From: Kiritimatiellia bacterium
Lineage (GTDB): Bacteria > Verrucomicrobiota > Kiritimatiellia > CAIQIC01 > Lenti-01
Direction of reading: 5' to 3'
DNA length: 12,507 nucleotides
Assembly: GCA_018432565.1 (NCBI GenBank)
Contig: JAHDSS010000152.1
Location: 1 to 12,507 of the forward strand
A model generated the notes under the pieces. The model was not told the DNA's origin and ran no database searches. It saw only the letters and a program-made list of their open reading frames with translations. The position numbers and the translations under genes are program-made. Position 1 is the first letter of the stretch. The number at the start of each line of letters is the position of its first letter. Positions 32 to 11,607 of the stretch are shown in pieces.

Positions 32-973
32 ATGAACACCACCCCCCATGTCCTCGTCACCGGCGGCGCCGGCTATCTCGGTTCCATCCTCGTCCCCTCC
101 CTTCTCGCCCGCGGCTGCGCCGTCACCGTCGTGGACAGCTTTCTCTACGGCCAGACCTCCCTCCTCGACTGCTGCGCCGACGAGAAGCTTTCCATCGTGC
201 GCGGCGACGTCCGCGACGAACGCCTCATGCTCCCCCTGCTGAAACAGGCCGACGTCATCATGCCGCTGGCCTGCCTCGTCGGGGCCCCCCTCTGCGCCCG
301 GAAGCCCCTCGAGGCCCGCTCCATCAATCTCGACGCCATCCTCATGCTGCTCTCGAACGCCTCGAAAGAGCAGCGGTTCATCTCCCCCACGAGCAACAGC
401 GGCTACGGCGTCGGGCAGGACGGCGTCTTCTGCACCGAAGAAACCCCCATGAACCCCGTCTCCCTTTACGGAACCCTCAAGGTCGAACTGGAGAAAGCCC
501 TCCTCGACGCCGGGGCCGTCTCGCTGCGCCTCGCCACCGTCTGCGGCATCAGCCCGCGCATGCGCCTCGACCTGCTCGTCAACGACTTCACCTACCGCGC
601 CGTCACCGACCGCTTCATCGTCCTCTTCGAAGCCCACTTCAAGCGCAACTACATCCACGTCCGCGACGTCGCCCGCGCCTTCCATCATGCCCTCGACCAC
701 TTCGACGCCATGCAGGGCCAGCCCTACAACGTCGGCCTCTCCGACGCCAACCTCTCCAAGATGGAACTCTGCCTCGAAATCCAGAAGCAGGTCCCCGAGT
801 TCACCATCATGGAAGCCCCCATCGGCAAGGACCCCGACCAGCGCAACTACATCGTCAGCAACGACAAGATCGAAGCCACCGGCTACCGCCCCCAGGTCTC
901 CCTCCCCCGCGCCATCACCGAACTCATCAAGGGCTACCAGGTCATCCGCCGCAACCAGTACGCCAATGTGTAA
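32..973 (+). CDS. NAD-dependent epimerase/dehydratase (extended SDR family)
   Basis: This 313-residue protein is probably a cytoplasmic nucleotide-sugar epimerase or dehydratase. The Rossmann dinucleotide loop TGGAGYLG lies at residues 10-17, an acidic residue follows beta-2 (VVDSF, about 33-37), and GDV at 58-60 contacts the adenine in this family. The catalytic Y-x3-K pair is Y146/K150, with T120/S123 in SPTSNSGYG as the likely Ser/Thr partner. RNYIHVRD near residue 208 and PYNVG near residue 240 are typical of sugar-nucleotide extended SDRs. The length is normal and the protein is complete. The ATG at 32 follows a GTAGGG stretch and a small GGG-TTCG-CCC hairpin; no strong Shine-Dalgarno is seen. 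The exact substrate cannot be read from sequence. The TAA stop overlaps the inverted repeat that begins the next unit. A polysaccharide cluster may lie to the left, outside the window. Confidence 0.9.
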   Translation: MNTTPHVLVTGGAGYLGSILVPSLLARGCAVTVVDSFLYGQTSLLDCCADEKLSIVRGDVRDERLMLPLLKQADVIMPLACLVGAPLCARKPLEARSINLDAILMLLSNASKEQRFISPTSNSGYGVGQDGVFCTEETPMNPVSLYGTLKVELEKALLDAGAVSLRLATVCGISPRMRLDLLVNDFTYRAVTDRFIVLFEAHFKRNYIHVRDVARAFHHALDHFDAMQGQPYNVGLSDANLSKMELCLEIQKQVPEFTIMEAPIGKDPDQRNYIVSNDKIEATGYRPQVSLPRAITELIKGYQVIRRNQYANV

Positions 974-1009
974 CAGCCGTCTCTCACAGAGACACAGCGG
1001 CACGGAGAT
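972..1009 (+). repeat. Left inverted repeat of GxxExxY unit
   Basis: Partner of 1444-1481 in opposite orientation, with 5 mismatches over 38 bp. It contains CTCACAGAGACACAGCGGCA. It occupies the whole gap between the epimerase stop and the stop of the convergent GxxExxY gene. Confidence 0.75.
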
Positions 1010-1401
1010 TATTGAAGAGAATCTTCCGGGGCATTAATCACCCGTGTGACCCCCTCCTTTAGCGTGGCCGCTCCGAAATTGATCAGCAGTCCGACCGGTT
1101 TCCCGGCCAGCTTCAGATAAGTCAGCAACTGTTTTTTGTGCACCGGAGCTGTTTGCTCGACAGATTTCAACTCCACAATCACCTGATCTTCCACCAGTAA
1201 ATCCATCCGAAACCCTTCGTCAAAGGACATCCCGTCATATACGAAACGCAGCGTCTTCTGACGCTCCACTTTCATCCCCCGCGACTCCAACTTCTTTGCC
1301 AACACAGCCTCGTAAACCGATTCCAGCAATCCCGGCCCCATGTCCCGATGGATTTGCAAGGCCGCGTCCACAATCGCCCCGGTAATGTCATTGATACTCA
1401 C
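1009..1401 (-). CDS. GxxExxY family protein (PDDEXK_3-like)
   Basis: This 130-residue protein belongs to the GxxExxY family, named after a motif seen here as G24-L-L-E27-S-V-Y30. Other visible hallmarks are H18 (IHRDMGPG), an acidic residue D67 in FRMDLLV, and E77-L-K79 in VIVELKSV. The last two fit the D...ExK signature of a PD-(D/E)xK nuclease-like fold. HKKQLLTYLKL at 88-98 and LLINFG at 105-110 are conserved in the family. The length is typical, so the gene looks intact. The start is GTG at 1401, which gives the canonical N-terminus MSINDITGAI; no in-frame ATG lies nearby upstream and the Shine-Dalgarno is weak. The biochemical role of the family is not established. The gene sits alone between inverted repeats and converges on the epimerase, so no operon partner is apparent. 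Confidence 0.92.
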   Translation of the reverse strand: MSINDITGAIVDAALQIHRDMGPGLLESVYEAVLAKKLESRGMKVERQKTLRFVYDGMSFDEGFRMDLLVEDQVIVELKSVEQTAPVHKKQLLTYLKLAGKPVGLLINFGAATLKEGVTRVINAPEDSLQ

Positions 1402-1443
1402 AGGCTGTTCTTAGCATTGTTTTGCTCTTCTTCCCAATCCATT

Positions 1444-1481
1444 TTCTCCGTGCCTCTGTGCCTCTGTGAGAACCGGCTGTT
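1444..1481 (-). repeat. Right inverted repeat of GxxExxY unit
   Basis: Reverse-complement partner of 972-1009, containing CTCCGTGCCTCTGTG then CCTCTGTGAG and CGGCTG. A second GGCTGTTCTT lies just outside and another lies inside near 1403, so small fragments of the sequence are reiterated here. Confidence 0.75.
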
Positions 1482-1571: not shown

Positions 1572-1582
1572 CCTGCGGTGCA

Positions 1583-1601
1583 TTTTCCATGCTATGGAAA
1601 A
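1583..1601. repeat. TTTTCCA...TGGAAAA palindrome, copy 1
   Basis: TTTTCCAT-GCT-ATGGAAAA is a perfect 8-bp inverted repeat around 3 bases. It belongs to the same family as the three palindromes at 11514-11607. It lies within the open frame upstream of the hydrolase, just after the TAGAAT box, where an operator or the start of a leader RNA would sit. Confidence 0.8.
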
Positions 1602-1650: not shown

Positions 1651-1689
1651 AGACCCCCACGGGCTTGCCCCGTGGGTGAATCAGTTCCG
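1651..1689 (+). repeat. Covarying hairpin repeat, copy A
   Basis: A 39-bp element: AGACC, then stem CCCACGGG, loop CTTGC, stem CCCGTGGG, then TGAATCAGTTCCG. It matches 7963-8001 at 35 of 39 positions. The four differences are two compensating G-C/C-G swaps in the stem. This copy overlaps the proposed GTG start of the hydrolase. Confidence 0.85.
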
Positions 1690-4087
1690 CTTCATCTATC
1701 CCCTCCCCGCCGCGATCGCCTTCCTCCTCCTCCTTCCCGCCGCCGCGCCTGCGGCGCGCGTCGTGGAGGACTTTTCCCCCGCCACCGTCTCCGCGTGGAC
1801 GCCCTACCAAAAGGCCCCCCGCCCCGTCGCCGCCGCCACCGGCATCGCCTTCCCCCTGCCGTTTTCGAAAGCGGTCGACCGCGCCGCCTGGGACAAGCCC
1901 GTCGCGCTCGACCTCTCCGCCGCCACCGCCTTTGAAATCGATCTGGCCTGCCCCCGCCCCGAAGCCATCCGCCAGTTCGGCCTCTACTTCAAGAGCGACA
2001 GCGGCTGGTACGCCGCCGGCAAGCCCATGCCCGGCCCCGGCCTCCAGACCCTCGTCTTCGCCAAGGCCGATTTCTCCACCGAAGGCGCCCCCGCCGGCTG
2101 GAACCGCATCGACGCCATCCGCCTCTCGCCGTGGAAAGGCGAAGCCCTCGACGCCGCTCTCGTCCTGCACCGCATCGCCGCCGTCGAGGGCGGCTCGCTC
2201 GTTGTCGTCCGCGGCACCTCCTCGTGTCCCAACGACGGCGAACGCGCCGTCGCCGCCAAGACCGCCGAGCGCGTCAGCCGCCTGCTCATCGAGGCCGGCA
2301 TCGGCCACGCTCTCGTCACCGACGACGACCTGCCCAAGGGCGCCCTGAAGAACGCCACGGCCGCCCTCCTGCCCTACAACCCCCAGCCCACCCCCGCCCA
2401 GCTCAAGACGCTCAACGCCTTCCTCGCCCGCGGCGGCAAACTCGGCGTCTTCTACGGCGCCTCGCCCGCCCTCGCCTCCGCCATGGGGTTCAAGCTCGGC
2501 CCCTACACCAAAGCCGAACGCCCCGACCGCTGGCGCTCCATCGCCTTCGACGACCCCGTCGCCTGGCTCGTCCCCCCCCGCATCTGGCAGAAATCCCACA
2601 ACCTCTTCCCCGCCTATCCGGCCCGGTCCGGTTCCCGTGCCATCGCCTTCTGGGAAAACGCCCGCGGCGTCCGCCAGCCCGAACCCGCCCTCGTCGTCTC
2701 CCCCCAGGGCTTCTGGATGTCCCACATCCTGCTCAACGACGACGCCCAGTCGAAAAAAGAACTCCTCGTCGCCCTTTGCGCCCATCTCGATCCCTCCCTC
2801 TGGGCGCCCGCCGCCGCCCGCGCCGTCCGCGACGCCGGCCGCGTCAACGACTTCCAATCCCTGCTCCACGCCCTCTCCGAAATCGAGGCCCGGCTCTCCC
2901 ACGCCGCCGACCCCGACGCCACCCGCGCCCTGCTCGACGAAGTCCGTTCCCTCTCCGCCCAGATCCAGGCCGCCCTTGCCGCCGGCCAGCACCGCCACGC
3001 CCTCCTGCTTGCCCGCCGCCAGCGCCACCTCATCCTGCGCGCCGACGCCGCCGTCCAGCTGCCCCGCCCCGGCGAATTCGTCGGCGTCTGGGACCACGAC
3101 GGCACCGGCTACATCCCCGGCGACTGGACCTTCACCGCCAACCACCTCGCCGCCCACGGCGTCAATGCCCTCTTCCCCAATCTCGCCTGGGGCGGCTGCG
3201 CCCACTACCCCTCCAAAGTCCTGCCCGCCTCCGACACCCTCCGCCTCTACGGCGACCAGCTCGCCGCCGTCCTCGCCGCCGCCAAGCCCCGCAACATGCA
3301 GGTCCACGTCTGGTTCGTCCTCTGGCAGCTCACCGGCGCCCCCGACGACTTCGCCGCGCGCATGAAAAAAGAAGGCCGGCTCCAGATCGATGCCAGCGGC
3401 AACACCCGCCCCTGGCTCAGCCCCCATCACCCCGCCAACCGGCAGCTCGTCCTCGACGCCATCGCCGAAGTCGCCAGAAACTATCCCGCCATCGACGGCA
3501 TCCACCTCGACTACATCCGCCTGCCCGATTCCCAGAGCTGCTACGCCCCGACCACCCGCGCCCGATTCGAAGCCGCCACCCGCAGGAAATCCAAGGCCTG
3601 GCCCGCCGAGGTCCTCCCCGGCGGCAAACGAAACGCCGAATTCCGAAAATGGCGCACCGCCGACATCACCGCCCTCGTCGCCGACATCCGCGCCGCCCTG
3701 AGCGCGGCCAATCCCAACGTCAAGCTCTCCGCCGCCGTCTTCGGCGCCATCCAGCCCGACGGCGGCAACATCGCCCAGTTCTGGCCCGACTGGCTCCGCG
3801 CCGGCTCCGTCGATTTCCTCACCCCCATGAACTACACCGAATCCTCCGCCGAATTTTCCTCCCTCGTCCGCAAGCAGGTCGCCCAGCCCAGCGCCGCCGG
3901 CCGCATCCTCCCCGGCATCGGCGTCACCGCCGACGAATCCCGCCTCGATCCCGCCGACGTCGCCCGCCAGATCGTCCTCGCCCGCCAGGCCGGCTGCCCC
4001 GGATTCCTCCTCTTCGACCTCTCCGGCACCCTCCGCGACGAAACCCTCCCCGCCCTCCGCCAGGGCCTTACCCGCCCCGTCCCATAG
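1676..4087 (+). CDS. Secreted GHL10-type glycoside hydrolase-like protein
   Basis: This is a large exported protein of the GHL10 (DUF187) glycoside-hydrolase-like family, 803 residues from the GTG at 1676. From that start the N-terminus is a good signal peptide: R5, a hydrophobic run AAIAFLLLLPAAA at 12-24, and a cleavage region near APAA. Residues ~28-165 look like a beta-sandwich binding domain. Residues ~170-290 (VVVRGTSSCPNDGE... LNAFLARGGKLGVFYG) resemble a GATase-like/ThuA-like alpha/beta domain. A helical linker spans ~385-460. The TIM-barrel catalytic region starts at GVWDHDG (~470) and includes GIHLDYIRLP around D612 and LTPMNYTE at ~715. The substrate is unknown, probably a polysaccharide. 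The frame is open from ATG 1550 and has another ATG at 1589, but both would place two repeats and a very long leader before the signal peptide. The start is therefore uncertain. The gene is convergent with the TPR gene, 13 bp away. Confidence 0.87.
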   Translation: MNQFRFIYPLPAAIAFLLLLPAAAPAARVVEDFSPATVSAWTPYQKAPRPVAAATGIAFPLPFSKAVDRAAWDKPVALDLSAATAFEIDLACPRPEAIRQFGLYFKSDSGWYAAGKPMPGPGLQTLVFAKADFSTEGAPAGWNRIDAIRLSPWKGEALDAALVLHRIAAVEGGSLVVVRGTSSCPNDGERAVAAKTAERVSRLLIEAGIGHALVTDDDLPKGALKNATAALLPYNPQPTPAQLKTLNAFLARGGKLGVFYGASPALASAMGFKLGPYTKAERPDRWRSIAFDDPVAWLVPPRIWQKSHNLFPAYPARSGSRAIAFWENARGVRQPEPALVVSPQGFWMSHILLNDDAQSKKELLVALCAHLDPSLWAPAAARAVRDAGRVNDFQSLLHALSEIEARLSHAADPDATRALLDEVRSLSAQIQAALAAGQHRHALLLARRQRHLILRADAAVQLPRPGEFVGVWDHDGTGYIPGDWTFTANHLAAHGVNALFPNLAWGGCAHYPSKVLPASDTLRLYGDQLAAVLAAAKPRNMQVHVWFVLWQLTGAPDDFAARMKKEGRLQIDASGNTRPWLSPHHPANRQLVLDAIAEVARNYPAIDGIHLDYIRLPDSQSCYAPTTRARFEAATRRKSKAWPAEVLPGGKRNAEFRKWRTADITALVADIRAALSAANPNVKLSAAVFGAIQPDGGNIAQFWPDWLRAGSVDFLTPMNYTESSAEFSSLVRKQVAQPSAAGRILPGIGVTADESRLDPADVARQIVLARQAGCPGFLLFDLSGTLRDETLPALRQGLTRPVP

Positions 4088-4100
4088 TGGATGTAGCCTC

Positions 4101-5867
4101 TTACGGTTTGGTCCCCGCCGGCATGTCCACCAACCGGTCGAGTCCGATGGGCCGCCATTCCCCCCCAGTCCGGATATCCAACGCCACGTCCAGCGGTTCG
4201 ACATAGCGCTGGCCGTTGACCGGGAATACATGCATCACAACCGGCTGGAAGGCCCGGTCCGTATCCGGGTAGCCATCCAAATCTGCATCCCGCGTCAGCA
4301 CATCGCCGATTCCGCCGAAGTCGCCGTCACCCTGGGCATCCACCGCCAGCAGGACCAAGCTTTCGGCATCGTAGATTTCCACCCGGCTGGGCACGCTGCC
4401 GCGCATGCGATAGTTGAGCCCGCCGCCCGATCCCGCCACGCCAATCTCATGGTACAGCGCCACGCTGTAGAAGGCATTCTGTTGGGCGAAATGGTAGTGA
4501 ATGGTGGATTCTTCCCGGCTTGGACCGGCCGCAACGGCCACCTGCCATTCCGCTGTCGCTTCCGGCTCGTCTAGCCACGTCAACGTGACCCGGGCTCCTT
4601 CCGCCGGCGGTTGCACATGCACCAGCCGGATGGCCAGCACGTCATCCCCTGCGACCACGAGTTCCCGGGCCTCATCGCCATCCCCCTCCCCGCCTCGCAG
4701 TTCAACTTCAACCTGCGCCGCCTCGAGCCGGATCCAGGCGATTTCGCCCGCCCCCCTCACCCTCAGCCGGCCTTTGCGTTCGGCCATGGACGGGTTCATA
4801 AGCCAAAACATGGTTTTCGCGGGCTGGTCCGGAGGAACATGCGTCGCCGTGTACACCGGTGCGATCGCCGCAGGCCGAAGCATGCGCACCCCCTCGGCCT
4901 CGGTGCCGCCGTGATCTTCCGGCTTGAAGTCGCGAAACGCCCGCGTCTGGAACTCCGTCAATCCGGATTGCTCCACAAAAGCGCGGGTGGCCTCCAGTTC
5001 CTGCGCCACATCCTGATGCCGTCCTTGCCGGGCCAAGCTGCGCAAACGGCCCACCCGCACCTTCAGCCATCGGTTTTTGCTGTAGGCCTCGAGGTGCCCG
5101 GCCAGATCCAGGGCTTCCGCCCAGACCGTTTCCGACGCCGACACCTGGCCAACCTGCTCCAGGATGTCGGCCTTCAGCATCAGCATCTCCGGCCGCACAT
5201 GATCGAGGTTCATGCTCCGGTTCAGGCGCAAGCCTTCATTGACCATGCGCAAGGCATCCTCCAAGCGGCCCTCCTGCCGCAGAAAATCGGCATAGGCCTG
5301 ATAGAGCCGCCCTTCGTACGGCTTGGCCCCCTGGCGCCGGTACGAATCCAAGGCGGCCAAGAAGTCGTTCTCGGCCCCGTCCATCCCCGCCCACCCGCGC
5401 GCCTTGCCCCGCCAGTACAGCGCGTTCGCCGCCACCACGCGGAATTCCCGCGCCTGGGCTTCCCGGACCACCTGCTCGAACTGCGTTTCGGCTTCTTCCG
5501 TCCGGCCCAACTCATACAGGATCGATGCCGCCCGCCGCCGGACCTCCAGCGAGGCATCGCCGCGATTGGTCTCCGCCAGGCGGTCCGCCTTGTCCAACAG
5601 ACGCTGGACCAATGGGTCGCTGGGCCCCTCGACACGGCTCTCGCGCCGCAATTGGTTGGCCTCCGCAATCAGGTCGCCGCCGCTGCCGCCACGATGCGCC
5701 AACGCCTCGGCCTGCCACTTCTCTTCCTCCTCATCCCGCCCCACCAGTCCCAGCATCACCGCATAGTTGTTGGCTGCGCGGGACATGTAGCCGGCATGGT
5801 CCGCATGGCCCGCCAGATGGATCTCGGCCACCGCCAGGCACTGTTCGTACATTCTGCCCCAAGACAA
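4101..5867 (-). CDS. TPR protein with C-terminal beta-domain, probably 5'-truncated
   Basis: About 588 residues remain. Residues ~15-310 are helical tetratricopeptide-type repeats, for example NNYAVMLGLVGRDEEEE, ILYELGRTEEAETQFEQVV, YADFLRQEGRLEDALRMV and ADILEQVGQVSASETVW. Residues ~330-588 are beta-rich and carry an acidic, calcium-binding-like motif DADLDGYPDTD at ~527-537, as in EF-hand or thrombospondin-3-like loops. No signal peptide or membrane helix is visible. The frame begins abruptly: the only starts are TTG at 5867 and ATG at 5852, neither with a Shine-Dalgarno, and the RAYT end starts at 5869. The open frame continues into that end without a stop. I infer that the original 5' part was lost or displaced when the RAYT unit arrived. 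No matching fragment appears on the far side. The function is not recognised; a scaffold or secreted role is possible. Confidence 0.7.
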   Translation of the reverse strand: MSWGRMYEQCLAVAEIHLAGHADHAGYMSRAANNYAVMLGLVGRDEEEEKWQAEALAHRGGSGGDLIAEANQLRRESRVEGPSDPLVQRLLDKADRLAETNRGDASLEVRRRAASILYELGRTEEAETQFEQVVREAQAREFRVVAANALYWRGKARGWAGMDGAENDFLAALDSYRRQGAKPYEGRLYQAYADFLRQEGRLEDALRMVNEGLRLNRSMNLDHVRPEMLMLKADILEQVGQVSASETVWAEALDLAGHLEAYSKNRWLKVRVGRLRSLARQGRHQDVAQELEATRAFVEQSGLTEFQTRAFRDFKPEDHGGTEAEGVRMLRPAAIAPVYTATHVPPDQPAKTMFWLMNPSMAERKGRLRVRGAGEIAWIRLEAAQVEVELRGGEGDGDEARELVVAGDDVLAIRLVHVQPPAEGARVTLTWLDEPEATAEWQVAVAAGPSREESTIHYHFAQQNAFYSVALYHEIGVAGSGGGLNYRMRGSVPSRVEIYDAESLVLLAVDAQGDGDFGGIGDVLTRDADLDGYPDTDRAFQPVVMHVFPVNGQRYVEPLDVALDIRTGGEWRPIGLDRLVDMPAGTKP

Positions 5868-5868
5868 G

Positions 5869-5894
5869 GGGGTCAGGCCTTGACGTTTGACAAC
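5869..5894 (+). repeat. RAYT left inverted end
   Basis: Begins GGGGTCAGGCCTTGACG and ends TTTGACAAC; inverted partner of 6917-6942 with 2 mismatches. The last five codons and the stop of the transposase (SNVKA-stop) lie within it. Just outside, CCCC-AAGACAA-GGGG can form a further small hairpin at 5857-5872. Confidence 0.85.
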
Positions 5895-6895
5895 CCCTGT
5901 CTGATCCTTTGACAGGTCTTCCAGAATCCAAGGTTCTCGCCCTGGAGGGAGCGGAGGATTCGCAGTCGGCGGGACACCACTGCGCCGTCCTTGTGACCAA
6001 GTCGGCGTCCGATATCCCTACCCATCATACCGCTTTCTGTTGTCCACAGCCAAATGAGGGCGTCCCTCGCTTCGTAGTTGCCTTTCTGTTTCTGCCAGTC
6101 AATCGATGGATCGAGTCCATACGATTGCGCTGTAGCCTCACGTACTAGGTCAGGATGGATTCCCTGTTCGATGCGGCGCATGGCAACATCCGGACCGTGA
6201 CCAAAGTCGGCGGCGAGTTGCTGGTATTTGTCCTCCATGTCCTTGCAGAACGTTTCACTTCCCACCGCCTTGCTGGATCGCTTCAGCGCCTCTTCCAGAT
6301 CCAGATCAGTGCGGGATAGCCCTGCATGCACATACCGGCGATAGGCTGCAGGCAAGTTTTTCGTGCCCAATCGTTCGCCAAGTAAAGCATGCAAGGGCGA
6401 ATACGAGACCCACTCGTGGTGTTTTTCCCATCCGCCGTACGACCGGTGTGTACTCCACCGGTATTTTTCCAGGATGTCCAAACGCTCTGATAGGTTGATT
6501 TGTTTCGTGGCTTTGGTCTGAACGGGGTTCAAGTGGAGATAGCGCACCAATTTCAGCAGATACGCGTCGCCTTCTACCAAGAGCGCCTTGAATCGGCCGC
6601 CAAACAGTGCCCCACATCGGCGATGCCGCACATTGAAGTAAGCGGTGTAGGAGGTCCCAAACTGGTGCATGAAACGACTTAGATTTCCCTGCGGCGTCAT
6701 TAGCAGTAAGTGGTAATGATTGGGCATGAGAACGTAGGCATAGAGCTTGATGCCGTGCGTTTCAACGCTCTCCTGAAGTTTATTCAGGAACGTGATCCGA
6801 TCCGCATCGCTCGTGAAGATTTGGCACCGGTTCACTCCCCGTGACATCACGTGATAGATCGCGCCTTCAAACTGACATCTAAGCATCCTCGCCAT
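5873..6895 (-). CDS. REP-associated tyrosine transposase (Y1_Tnp family)
   Basis: A 340-residue Y1-type single-strand DNA transposase of the RAYT group. The N-terminal GAIYHVMSRGVNR (11-23) and IF are typical of the family. The HUH metal-binding motif is H60-Y61-H62 in MPNHYHLLL, and the conserved helix LLKLVRYLHLNPVQ (113-126) carries Y119, the most likely catalytic tyrosine. The C-terminal ~80 residues contain a helix-turn-helix-like GRDIGRRLGHKDGAVVSRRL resembling DnaA domain IV, as in long RAYT versions. Known RAYTs nick and join REP-type hairpins in single-stranded DNA. The gene looks intact. The start is ATG 6895, with ATG 6886 an alternative. A -35 TTGACA (6926-6931) lies in the right inverted end, with TAAAGT (6904-6909) as -10, which would give a nearly leaderless message. 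Confidence 0.93.
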   Translation of the reverse strand: MARMLRCQFEGAIYHVMSRGVNRCQIFTSDADRITFLNKLQESVETHGIKLYAYVLMPNHYHLLLMTPQGNLSRFMHQFGTSYTAYFNVRHRRCGALFGGRFKALLVEGDAYLLKLVRYLHLNPVQTKATKQINLSERLDILEKYRWSTHRSYGGWEKHHEWVSYSPLHALLGERLGTKNLPAAYRRYVHAGLSRTDLDLEEALKRSSKAVGSETFCKDMEDKYQQLAADFGHGPDVAMRRIEQGIHPDLVREATAQSYGLDPSIDWQKQKGNYEARDALIWLWTTESGMMGRDIGRRLGHKDGAVVSRRLRILRSLQGENLGFWKTCQRIRQGLSNVKA

Positions 6896-6903
6896 AAACT
6901 GCT

Positions 6904-6931
6904 ACTTTAGCCACGTGTTGACAAATGTCAA
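6904..6931 (-). promoter_or_regulatory. Candidate RAYT promoter, -35 inside the right end
   Basis: On the minus strand a perfect TTGACA (6926-6931) is followed after 16 bp by TAAAGT (6904-6909, 4 of 6 to TATAAT). Only 8 bases separate this box from the ATG at 6895. The -35 is one arm of the TTGACA-AA-TGTCAA foldback, so transposase bound at the end could repress its own gene. That control is inference. Confidence 0.45.
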
Positions 6932-6942
6932 GGCCTGACCCC
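6917..6942 (-). repeat. RAYT right inverted end
   Basis: Inverted partner of 5869-5894 (24 of 26 matches). It contains the palindrome TTGACA-AA-TGTCAA at 6918-6931, followed by AGGCCTGACCCC. Confidence 0.85.
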
Positions 6943-6943
6943 G

Positions 6944-6972
6944 TGGACATGGGCGGTTGGATGCGGGATAGT
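6944..6972 (+). promoter_or_regulatory. Candidate thyX promoter
   Basis: TGGACA (6944-6949, 5 of 6 to TTGACA), a 17-bp spacer, then GATAGT (6967-6972, 4 of 6). The expected start of transcription is within a few bases of the thyX ATG at 6981. This would give an almost leaderless mRNA and fits the absence of a Shine-Dalgarno. The -35 begins two bases beyond the RAYT end. Confidence 0.4.
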
Positions 6973-6980
6973 TGCCCCCC

Positions 6981-7865
6981 ATGAGCATTTCCGCCCAGAT
7001 CGTCGCCGACAGCGTTTCGCCGCAAGGCATCCGGCTGACCACGCTGTCGCTGAAATATCCCCGCTGGATCCATGCGGAATTCATGACCCACCGCCTGTTT
7101 TCGCGCAATGCCAGCAGCTCCCGCGCCGTGCCGTCGAAGCGTCTGCGTGCGCTGGAACGCGAATATCCCCTCTGGTGGGGCGCCAACATTCCCGGCATGC
7201 AGGCCGGCGGCAAGCTCTCCGACGAGCAGGGCACCCGGGCCAAGGCCATCTGGGACCGCATGGCCGACGTCTGCATCGAAGGCGTCGCCGAACTCGCCGA
7301 ACTGGGCCTCCACAAGCAGTGGGCCAACCGCCCCTTGGAGTGGTTCACGTCCATCTCCGTGCTCGTCTCCGCCACATCCTTCGACAATTTCTTCGGCGTG
7401 CGCTGGCACCCCGACGCCCAGCCCGAAATCCAGGAACTGGCCCGGCAGATGTTTTCGGCCCTGCACTCCAGCACCCCCCGGCCCCTCGATCCCGACCAGT
7501 GGCACCTGCCCTACGTCTCCGCCGACGAGGAACAATCCCTCGGCCTCGACACCGCCCGGCGCTGCTCGGCCGCGCGCTGCGCCCGCGTGTCCTACCTCAA
7601 CCACGACGGCACCGCCCCCAACGTCGCCAAGGACCTCGATACCTTCGCCAAGCTGGCGGGCGATCCCAACGGCCCGCCCCAGCCGCTGCACGCCTCGCCC
7701 ATGGAACACCAGGCCACCCCCGACCGCCTCCGCGACCCCGCCGACCCCTCGTCCTGGCAGAATCCCGCCCAGCACGGCAACTTCCACGGCTGGCGCCAGT
7801 TCCGCAAAATGCTCGCCCGCGAACAGATCAAAAGATTCACGCCGCCGGGCGGAACAACGGAATAA
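6981..7865 (+). CDS. thyX: FAD-dependent thymidylate synthase (ThyX family, long form)
   Basis: Flavin-dependent thymidylate synthase converting dUMP to dTMP with methylene-tetrahydrofolate and NADPH. The ThyX signature (RHRxxSxxxxSxR) appears as THRLFSRNASSSR at residues 36-48: H37, R38, S41, S45 and R48 are kept and the first Arg is Thr. HASPMEHQA at ~233-241 and NFHGWRQFRKM near the C-terminus are further ThyX-like blocks. At 294 residues it is longer than the common ~220-250-residue bacterial form and resembles the longer version found in phages and some environmental bacteria. ATG 6981 is preferred; TTG 6972 adds only three residues. The last codons run into the GGAAT repeat, so the C-terminal tail may be repeat-derived. 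The adjacent B12-dependent nrdJ supports a role in DNA-precursor supply. Confidence 0.88.
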   Translation: MSISAQIVADSVSPQGIRLTTLSLKYPRWIHAEFMTHRLFSRNASSSRAVPSKRLRALEREYPLWWGANIPGMQAGGKLSDEQGTRAKAIWDRMADVCIEGVAELAELGLHKQWANRPLEWFTSISVLVSATSFDNFFGVRWHPDAQPEIQELARQMFSALHSSTPRPLDPDQWHLPYVSADEEQSLGLDTARRCSAARCARVSYLNHDGTAPNVAKDLDTFAKLAGDPNGPPQPLHASPMEHQATPDRLRDPADPSSWQNPAQHGNFHGWRQFRKMLAREQIKRFTPPGGTTE

Positions 7866-7939
7866 TGGAATATTGGAAGGGTGGATGGGTGATCTATCGA
7901 GGTGGGGTCCCCAACATTCCATTTATTCCAACATTCCAG
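7859..7939. repeat. GGAAT-rich imperfect inverted repeat around TGGGGTCCCCA
   Basis: The left arm (7859-7878) is built on GGAATAATGG and AATATTGGAA. The right arm (7917-7939) is its imperfect inverted counterpart, with TTCCATTTATTCC then AACATTCC. Between them lies a perfect odd palindrome TGGGGTCCCCA at 7903-7913. It is AT-richer than the neighbouring genes, contains the thyX stop, and looks like a dispersed intergenic repeat rather than a gene part. It could fold and act at the end of the thyX message, but there is no T-run. Confidence 0.55.
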
Positions 7940-7962
7940 TTAAGCCCGTGGGCGGGGCTTGA

Positions 7963-8001
7963 AGACCCCCACGCCCTTGCGGCGTGGGTGAATCAGTTCC
8001 G
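7963..8001 (+). repeat. Covarying hairpin repeat, copy B
   Basis: A 39-bp element: AGACC, stem CCCACGCC, loop CTTGC, stem GGCGTGGG, then TGAATCAGTTCCG. It differs from 1651-1689 only at two stem base pairs, both swapped in a compensatory way. Here it is intergenic and is preceded by a second small hairpin, AAGCCC-(7 nt)-GGGCTT, at 7942-7960. It ends about 40 bp before the candidate nrdJ -10 box. Confidence 0.85.
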
Positions 8002-11448: not shown

Positions 11449-11513
11449 CACCGGACCTCCCCCCCCCCCGAGGGGACTCGCGGCTCAACCGTCCCCCGGC
11501 CCAAGGTTCCGGA

Positions 11514-11607
11514 TTTTCCACGGCGTGGAAAACGGCGCGCGATTTTTTCCACAGCGTGGAAAAAAGCCTGTCCCGCTTCAGCGGGATTTTCCATGGCGTG
11601 GAAAATC
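11514..11607. repeat. Three TTTTCCA...TGGAAAA palindromes (copies 2-4)
   Basis: Copy 2 (11514-11532) is TTTTCCAC-GGC-GTGGAAAA. Copy 3 (11543-11565) is the longest, with a 10-bp stem around AGC and six T and six A at its ends. Copy 4 (11585-11607) has stem GATTTTCCA with TGGAAAATC around TGGCG, including a T-G wobble. The shared core, also seen at 1583-1601, is TTTTCCAYRSYRTGGAAAA. The inner pair varies as T-A, C-G, C-G and T-G, which preserves pairing. Spacing between centres is about 31 and 42 bp. Confidence 0.85.
11571..11590 (+). terminator. Weak terminator-like hairpin
   Basis: TCCCGC-TTCA-GCGGGA forms a 6-bp stem followed by TTTT. The T-run is the arm of palindrome copy 4, so this could be chance overlap. 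It would act as a back-up stop for ilvC read-through before the membrane-protein gene. Confidence 0.3.

What the first reader, a model, noticed from the sequence alone, without database searches (positions are those of the whole stretch)
1651..8001. Two-copy hairpin element with perfect compensatory stem changes
The 39-bp segments 1651-1689 and 7963-8001 are identical except at four positions. These four are exactly two stem base pairs flipped from G-C to C-G on both arms. The stem (8 bp) and loop CTTGC are kept, and the tail TGAATCAGTTCCG is invariant. In only two copies, covariation with no other change points to selection or template copying at the level of a folded DNA or RNA hairpin. Both copies lie upstream of gene starts (the GHL10 hydrolase and nrdJ) in the same orientation. 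It may be a REP-like element or an undescribed leader RNA motif.
Basis: partly seen in the sequence, partly recalled or inferred. Interest (0 to 1): 0.75.

Follow-up and report, generated by a model that had tools for sequence, protein, structure and literature searches.

The report
Hairpin repeats spread beside a transposase
The two hairpins are members of a roughly 100-copy family of tiny, apparently mobile DNA repeats whose stem letters change freely while pairing and loop stay fixed, and the family occurs beside an unusual two-part transposase gene, so it looks like a mobile-repeat system and not a gene-leader RNA.

Summary
In detail: 1651-1689 and 7963-8001 differ only at two stem pairs, changed on both arms. 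They belong to a 37-nt repeat: 98 covariance-model matches in this genome; a 16-nt core gave 78 places against 0 for the reversed pattern. Among 50 distinct copies 98.8% of stem cells pair and 5 of 8 pairs show double changes. Copies are extragenic (3 of 87 inside predicted genes, 84% coding), in either orientation. The thyX-nrdJ gap lacks the hairpin in 8 of 8 relatives. So it is an inserted repeat, not a leader RNA.

It is REP-like. A 253-aa Y1-type transposase gene on contig C228 has copies on both sides. Of 30 homologue loci, 21 have CTTG-loop hairpins within 450 bp; control stretches 0 of 30. Stem sequences differ between lineages; loop and about 8-bp length persist. The transposase looks like two fused IS200-type domains, tyrosine in the first, HUH histidines in the second. 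The GTAG or CGTC foot of classical REPs is absent. Structure prediction could not be run. New variant of a known kind.

The parts
1651..1689 (+). Copy 1 of the repeat (R1): 37-nt unit 1651-1687 plus CG; overlaps the likely GTG start (1676-1678) of the GHL10 gene
   Evidence: (CM 65.5 bits)
1656..1663 (+). 5' stem arm of copy 1 (CCCACGGG), pairs with 1669-1676
   Evidence: direct reading
1664..1668 (+). Loop CTTGC of copy 1
   Evidence: direct reading; loop CTTGC or CTTGT in 70 of 77 filtered copies
1669..1676 (+). 3' stem arm of copy 1 (CCCGTGGG)
   Evidence: direct reading
1677..1687 (+). Conserved tail TGAATCAGTTC; on the other strand this is the 5' foot GAACTGATTCA
7963..8001 (+). Copy 2 of the repeat, between thyX and nrdJ; absent at this place in 8 of 8 relatives
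   Evidence: (64.3 bits)
7968..7975 (+). 5' stem arm of copy 2 (CCCACGCC), pairs with 7981-7988
   Evidence: direct reading
7976..7980 (+). Loop CTTGC of copy 2
   Evidence: direct reading
7981..7988 (+). 3' stem arm of copy 2 (GGCGTGGG)
   Evidence: direct reading
7989..7999 (+). Conserved tail TGAATCAGTTC of copy 2

Best explanation
The two hairpins are copies of a non-autonomous REP-like mobile repeat: a 37-nt singlet consisting of AGACC, an 8-bp stem, a CTTGY loop, the other stem arm, and TGAATCAGKTC. Shown: it is dispersed, extragenic, sharply bounded, pairs through compensatory changes, and flanks a Y1-type transposase gene (RAYT-like) many of whose distant homologues are flanked by hairpins with the same loop and stem length but other stem letters. 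Inferred: the transposase recognises the folded single-stranded hairpin by its loop, its foot (CTGATTCA, on the strand complementary to the window's +) and its stem length, not by stem sequence. Mutations that keep the pairing are then tolerated and unpaired ones are lost, which gives the flipped pairs. Also inferred: the transposase is a fused pair of IS200-type domains with one composite active site, the tyrosine (Y111) from the N-domain and the HUH pair (H202, H204) from the C-domain. Transposition itself was not observed.
For: 78 pattern places against 0 control; 98 CM copies. Covariation on 50 distinct copies: 98.8% of cells paired against 83.8% shuffled, score 0.376 against 0.109 (0 of 500 shuffles), slid controls at 40-57% paired. 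Information content falls off abruptly outside the 37 nt at 49 sites. 3 of 87 copies inside predicted genes at 84% coding. The C228 gene of 253 aa has four copies upstream and the first 13 nt of another, cut by the contig end, 2 bases after its stop. CTTG-loop hairpins beside 21 of 30 homologue loci (the C228 gene itself included) against 0 of 30 control stretches; beside 5 of 5 further loci with CTCG loops admitted, where 1 of 5 controls was also positive. Element and homologue co-occur in 387 phylum genomes: 6 of 12 genomes with the exact core have the gene against 18 of 375 without the core (Fisher p 2e-5). Hairpin absent at thyX-nrdJ in 8 of 8 relatives. In published group 3 REPs, stem mismatches cut cleavage and loop bases are critical (PMC8266576, passages).
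Against: 4 of the 12 genomes (own included) with 10 or more CM copies (G013, G014, G015, G021) showed no homologue at E<=1e-10; G014 and G015 are only 69% and 66% complete, G013 and G021 are 93-94%. 6 of 12 genomes with the exact core have no homologue at that level, and 4 of 12 named assemblies with a pattern match have none even at E<=1e-3. 9 of 30 homologue loci had no CTTG-loop hairpin by the strict search. No precise excision or target duplication was seen: window and G013 differ by about 72 bp against about 14 bp. Copies are single or head-to-tail, unlike the inverted doublets of REPINs. The composite active site rests on sequence only; Y240 and Y247 near the C-terminus are also invariant and cannot be excluded as the nucleophile. 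No structure model was obtained.
Confidence: 0.82

Rival explanations
1. A cis-regulatory leader RNA of nrdJ, GHL10 and other genes: the hairpin acts in the 5' UTR of the mRNA.
For: In the window both copies lie near gene starts in gene orientation. Among sites between same-strand genes, 14 are in gene orientation and 7 against.
Against: 10 of 49 sites are between convergent genes and 4 of 49 between divergent ones. 8 of 8 relatives lack the hairpin before nrdJ, and 7 of the 8 keep sequence similar to the window's next to the start. No Rfam family reaches its gathering score in the window. Such hairpins flank a transposase gene at 21 of 30 loci.
Confidence: 0.04
2. A REP-like repeat whose paired changes arise not from recognition by a protein but from template copying of one arm from the other (quasipalindrome correction) during replication.
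For: 72 of 77 filtered copies have a perfect stem, and only 2 carry GC/CC at the inner pairs, the half-way state of a double change there. Adjacent units of the C442 array differ by one pair changed on both arms with little other change.
Against: The CTTG loop and the stem length persist across lineages with different stem sequences, which copying alone does not explain.
Confidence: 0.25
3. A transcription terminator or mRNA 3'-end stabilising hairpin kept by selection on the host, with no mobility.
For: 10 of 49 sites lie between convergent genes and only 4 between divergent ones.
Against: No T-run follows in the 49-site profile; tandem arrays of up to 7 units; 37 nt conserved beyond pairing needs; association with a transposase gene; patchy presence: same-genus genome G001 has 0 model matches and one core match with a mismatch.
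Confidence: 0.05

Closest known systems
Group 3 (class 2.5) REPs and TnpA_REP of Stenotrophomonas/Marinomonas (PMC8266576, passages; PMC6006769, sections)
   Same: Short perfect palindrome with a small critical loop; gene flanked by its own repeats; Y1/HUH transposase; stem mismatches harmful in published assays
   Different: GTAG foot there, CTGATTCA-type foot here; single core with HUH before Y there, Y before HUH over two domains here
Class 3 TnpA_Y1 of Planctomycetes, Acidobacteria and Proteobacteria (PMC6006769, sections 6, 12 and 27 read, plus passages)
   Same: Foot CnGA is reported there and the element here reads CTGA at the same end; high copy number; partly the same phyla; tyrosine motif with a following Q
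   Different: About 178 aa (as I read the table row) with NHVH and Y-V-x-x-E-Q there; here 253 aa, Y-[IL]-x-x-Q in an N-terminal domain ahead of D-H-x-H
GTAG- and CGTC-tagged REPs, including those of Opitutus terrae (PMC3733652, passages)
   Same: 6-9 bp stems, extragenic, tandem groups, more than one family per genome; also in Verrucomicrobia
   Different: Neither GTAG nor CGTC at either end here
REPINs (PMC3116915, passages)
   Same: Short repeats linked to RAYT genes, with compensatory changes in hairpins
   Different: REPINs are inverted doublets; here 36 of 49 sites are singlets and 26 of 28 neighbour pairs are direct
IS200/IS605 TnpA (NF033573, PF01797)
   Same: C-terminal domain matches PF01797 above its cut-off and NF033573 below its cut-off; 6 of the 7 PDB sequences matched at E<=1 are called transposases, best E 5.9e-5
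   Different: One polypeptide with two diverged domains instead of a homodimer; the repeat, not an insertion sequence, is what is dispersed

Membership tests
REP (repetitive extragenic palindrome), broad sense | Short palindrome in many copies, mostly extragenic | tested here: met
   98 CM copies; 3 of 87 inside predicted genes (home-made gene calls)
REP (repetitive extragenic palindrome), broad sense | Copies flank a Y1-type transposase gene (RAYT) | tested here: met
   C228 gene; 21 of 30 homologue loci by the CTTG-hairpin criterion
Canonical GTAG or CGTC REP superfamilies | Terminal GTAG (GTRG) or CGTC tetranucleotide | tested here: not met
   Ends are AGACC and CAGKTC; 49-site profile
REPIN | Inverted doublet as the dispersing unit | tested here: not met
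   36 of 49 sites single; 26 of 28 neighbour pairs direct
Class 3 TnpA_Y1 (Quentin 2018) | Repeat foot CnGA | tested here: met
   Reverse strand reads CTGATTCA before the stem; each base kept in 45-49 of 49 sites
Class 3 TnpA_Y1 (Quentin 2018) | Core profile with NHVH and Y-V-x-x-E-Q, about 178 aa | tested here: not met
   253 aa; Y111 precedes H202/H204; motif Y-[IL]-x-x-Q; the class 3 HMM itself was not available
IS200/IS605 transposase | HUH and catalytic Tyr in one about 130-aa domain | tested here: not met
   PF01797 matched only residues 155-222; N-half aligns with the HUH-to-Y stretch with both H lost (0 of 20) and Y kept (20 of 20)
IS200/IS605 transposase | Cleavage and joining of hairpin ssDNA | not testable with these tools
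   Needs biochemistry
Leader RNA / riboswitch | Conserved position upstream of orthologous genes | tested here: not met
   Hairpin absent before nrdJ in 8 of 8 relatives. For GHL10, 10 orthologues were viewed and a copy sits at the same place in one of them, G016
Leader RNA / riboswitch | Known family | tested here: not met
   0 Rfam matches at the gathering score in the window

The most novel reading that the evidence does not exclude
A separate branch of REP systems in Kiritimatiellae and other Verrucomicrobia/Lentisphaerae (deposited names) and, rarely, Planctomycetota. Its transposase is a single-chain, asymmetric fusion of two IS200-type domains with exactly one composite active site (Tyr from one domain, HUH from the other). 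Its repeats are read by loop (CTTG) and stem length, so stem sequence drifts freely through compensatory changes. A second family of about 295 aa (L210, L211, L212, L214) with the same split, and with CTTGC-loop 7-bp hairpins beside 3 of 4 genes, suggests a wider superfamily.
Probability: 0.55. Interest if true: 0.68.

Novelty: new variant of a known kind. Interest (0 to 1): 0.55.

Why it matters
REP spreading is poorly understood because recognition rules have been worked out for only a few systems. Here nature supplies many loop-fixed, stem-free variants tied to a recognisable transposase lineage, so the question of what a REP transposase reads becomes directly testable. A fused transposase with one active site would show a second evolutionary route from the homodimeric IS200 enzyme to a one-site enzyme.

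Tried and rejected
Leader RNA: rejected by gene context and by empty orthologous places. Transposase in the window (5873-6895, minus strand) as the mobiliser: rejected, because its own imperfect 45-nt end repeats (5858-5902 / 6909-6953) are another sequence and no hairpin copy adjoins it (nearest about 1.06 kb away). Of the 12 Y1 genes found, seven have GGGGTCAG-type ends, two have other end repeats (L054, L057), two have other repeats beside them (L058, L059), and one (C228) has this repeat. Plasmid or phage origin: no match for the 39-mer in either collection (distant mode, E<=0.01). CRISPR-like array: rejected, because most sites are single (36 of 49) and the tandem units seen do not alternate with unique spacers. 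Intrinsic terminator: no T-run. My first ORF choice for five of the 12 transposase genes was the wrong frame; corrected. The HMM contains those wrong frames and was used only to list candidates.

Rows dropped before counts: C87:6758 (3 mismatches, not a hairpin) was left out of the 87. In one search, 77 of 88 rows passed the hairpin filter and 11 did not: C87:6758; eight with another repeat inside the loop; and two degenerate ones, C159:1592 and C302:502. The 50 sequences are the distinct ones among the 77, so the 98.8% is measured on copies that already passed a filter of at least 6 of 8 pairs. The site-level context uses the first copy of each of 49 clusters of those 77.
Full report
OBSERVATION. 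Both 39-nt segments are present as described. The four differences are the two innermost pairs of an 8-bp stem with loop CTTGC, changed from G-C to C-G on both arms.

FAMILY IN THE GENOME. The window is contig C86 of a 2.51-Mb, 604-contig assembly estimated 82.9% complete. The core GTGGGTGAATCAGTTC with up to 2 mismatches has 78 places (47 forward, 31 reverse); the pattern read backwards has 0. In the stretches fetched around those places, 88 rows have at most 3 mismatches. 77 of these 88 pass the hairpin filter: 72 with 8 of 8 pairs and 5 with 7 of 8. A covariance model finds 98 copies at E<=0.01; 121 candidates per genome were scored, so this may be a lower bound. By the model, 18 of 56 genomes (own included) have a match: for example 118 in G012, 47 in G002 (same genus), 0 in G001 (same genus; one core match with a mismatch).

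COVARIATION. On the 50 distinct sequences, 98.8% of 400 cells are standard pairs against 83.8% after shuffling. 47 cells in 5 of 8 pairs are changed on both sides; the covariation score is 0.376 against 0.109 (0 of 500 shuffles reached it); sliding the partner by 1-3 columns gives 40-57% paired. The number of pairs with double changes is weaker alone (25 of 500 shuffles reach it). Related copies inflate such measures, and the copies had been filtered for at least 6 pairs. The loop is CTTGC or CTTGT in 70 of 77 copies.

UNIT AND ARRANGEMENT. In a profile of 49 sites, one copy per site, information rises abruptly at AGACC and ends at TC (37 nt). There is only a weak pyrimidine preference just outside, and no strong target motif like those I recall for IS200/IS605 elements. 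36 of 49 sites are single copies; 26 of 28 neighbouring pairs are head-to-tail, with spacings of 38-118 bp, most often 44 and 64. This differs from REPINs.

GENE CONTEXT. With a home-made codon-usage gene caller (84% of 184 kb called coding), 3 of 87 copies are inside genes. By site: 21 between same-strand genes, 10 convergent, 4 divergent, 7 partial overlaps, 4 at contig edges, 3 inside. Copy 1 overlaps the likely start of the GHL10 gene. GTG 1676-1678 lies in the element and is followed by a signal-peptide-like stretch; in relative G016 a copy sits at the same place in the same frame, while G002 has other repeats there (10 orthologues viewed). Copy 2 lies between thyX and nrdJ. In 8 relatives whose thyX-nrdJ gap was recovered (G002, G007, G008, G010, G011, G012, G013, G016), 0 have the hairpin. 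G013 shares the sequence on both sides but has about 14 bp where the window has about 72 bp, and G012 has a different 675-bp gap. The simplest reading is that the hairpin arrived at this place in the window's lineage, and that nrdJ does not need it.

THE TRANSPOSASE. Twelve Y1_Tnp matches are in the genome. Only one gene adjoins this repeat: contig C228, 253 aa, with four copies in both orientations upstream and, 2 bases after the stop codon, GGACCTGATTCAC, the beginning of a further copy at the contig end. Close homologues (70-78% identity) in G007, G012 (two) and G016, and a shortened one in G002, also have copies beside them. In 387 phylum genomes, 24 have a homologue at E<=1e-10 and 12 have the exact core CGTGGGTGAATCAG; 6 have both (Fisher p 2e-5). 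Among 12 named assemblies with a match to the longer pattern (all 12 were searched), 8 had any match to the protein at E<=1e-3 and 7 at E<=1e-40; the four without any match had one pattern match each. In the phylum of a Planctomycetaceae assembly (G415) only 3 of 294 genomes had a homologue at E<=1e-20, the centre included. Against the link: of 12 genomes (own included) with at least 10 model copies, 4 (G013, G014, G015, G021) showed no homologue at E<=1e-10.

THE RULE ACROSS LINEAGES. 30 loci were examined: the C228 gene, homologues of 26-78% identity, and fragments. 21 have a hairpin of at least 7 bp with a CTTG/CAAG-type loop within 450 bp on at least one side, 13 on both; stretches 1,000-1,450 bp away have 0 of 30. 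Some flanks were cut short by contig ends (L149 has only 18 nt downstream), and some controls are one-sided. Of 5 further loci, 5 have such hairpins (CTCG loops admitted) and 1 of 5 control stretches does too. Stems differ widely (CCCACGGG, CCTGCCGC, CCATCCAG, CCGCCGAC and others), mostly 8 bp. In a genome of the Planctomycetaceae phylum (L273) the frame GATTCA-stem-CAAG-stem-GGTC is kept around a different stem. I infer that loop, foot and stem length are read, and stem sequence is not.

TWO DOMAINS. In 20 aligned homologues, Y111 and Q115 (Y-x-x-x-Q) and H202 and H204 (D-H-x-H) are invariant. The N-terminal half aligns with the HUH-to-Tyr stretch of single-domain IS200 transposases (one-template E 4.5e-5, probability 69%) with both histidines lost and the tyrosine kept. 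The C-terminal half aligns with the part up to just before the tyrosine (E 5.8e-8, probability 95%). The halves align weakly with each other, with the HUH position opposite x-[VIL]-Q (E 0.0024, probability 12%). The simplest reading is a fused dimer with one composite active site; that IS200 transposases work as homodimers is stated in PMC2817692 (passage), and that the tyrosine acts in trans is recalled. Y240 and Y247 are also invariant, so this is not proven. A second family of about 295-aa two-domain proteins, in which the IS200 profile hits twice (four loci), shows the same split by eye; 3 of 4 of these genes have CTTGC-loop 7-bp hairpins beside them.

KNOWN WORK. Published group 3 REPs need an intact stem and specific loop bases (PMC8266576, passages). 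Class 3 TnpA_Y1 genes have repeats with a CnGA foot and occur in Planctomycetes (PMC6006769, sections 6, 12, 27); the element here reads CTGA but the protein order differs. Most REPs carry GTAG or CGTC (PMC3733652, passages). REPIN spacers show compensatory changes (PMC3116915, passage). Seven searches of the held library listed no paper that I recognised, from title and abstract start, as describing a fused or two-domain REP transposase or this repeat. Several of those listings were capped (for example 8 of 875), the library is open-access only, and the main RAYT classification paper (looked up by a recalled DOI) was not held. Novelty of the protein is therefore likely but not established.

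VERDICT. A real, dispersed, REP-like family with a distinct recognition logic and probably a new kind of transposase; neither a leader RNA nor a two-copy curiosity.

Noticed in passing
window 1676-1678; L261 (G016): The tail of the repeat seems to supply the GTG start and first residues of a GHL10 signal peptide; the same arrangement occurs in G016, while G002 has different repeats at that place.
   Followed up: partly
window 1580-1601, 11511-11605: Another palindromic repeat, TTTTCCAnnnnnTGGAAAA-like, in one plus three copies; the same kind crowds the region upstream of GHL10 in several relatives.
   Followed up: partly
G000 contigs C90, C268, C302, C390, C442, C511, C529: In 8 copies a second repeat (stem with AGCCTTGGCGAA or a near variant inside) lies in the loop, after CTTG; it also occurs outside (C90, C106) and is again preceded by CTTG there.
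   Followed up: partly
G000:C90:161-350 and G000:C529:3719-3802: Shared flanking sequence but 4 against 2 units: possible copy-number alleles of one tandem array, or an assembly effect.
   Followed up: no
window 5858-6953: Y1 transposase gene with its own imperfect 45-nt inverted end repeats (GTCAAGGCCTGACCCC type); six other Y1 genes of the genome have GGGGTCAG-type ends too.
   Followed up: partly
L058 (G000:C326), L059 (G000:C91): Two further Y1 genes flanked by other repeated hairpins (GGGACGACCTCGTCCC-type and GCCACCTCGGCGTGGTGGC-type): more REP-like families in the same genome.
   Followed up: no
window 972-1481: 44-nt inverted repeats (84% complementary) around a 130-aa PD-(D/E)XK protein gene (1009-1401, minus strand): perhaps a small mobile cassette.
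   Followed up: no
L210, L211, L212, L214: Second family of about 295-aa two-domain IS200-type proteins with the same split of Tyr and HUH; 3 of 4 have CTTGC-loop hairpins beside them.
   Followed up: partly
L240 (G012:C350): The thyX-nrdJ gap of G012 holds a 675-bp stretch with what look like two small genes; by eye and recall a possible toxin-antitoxin pair, untested.
   Followed up: no
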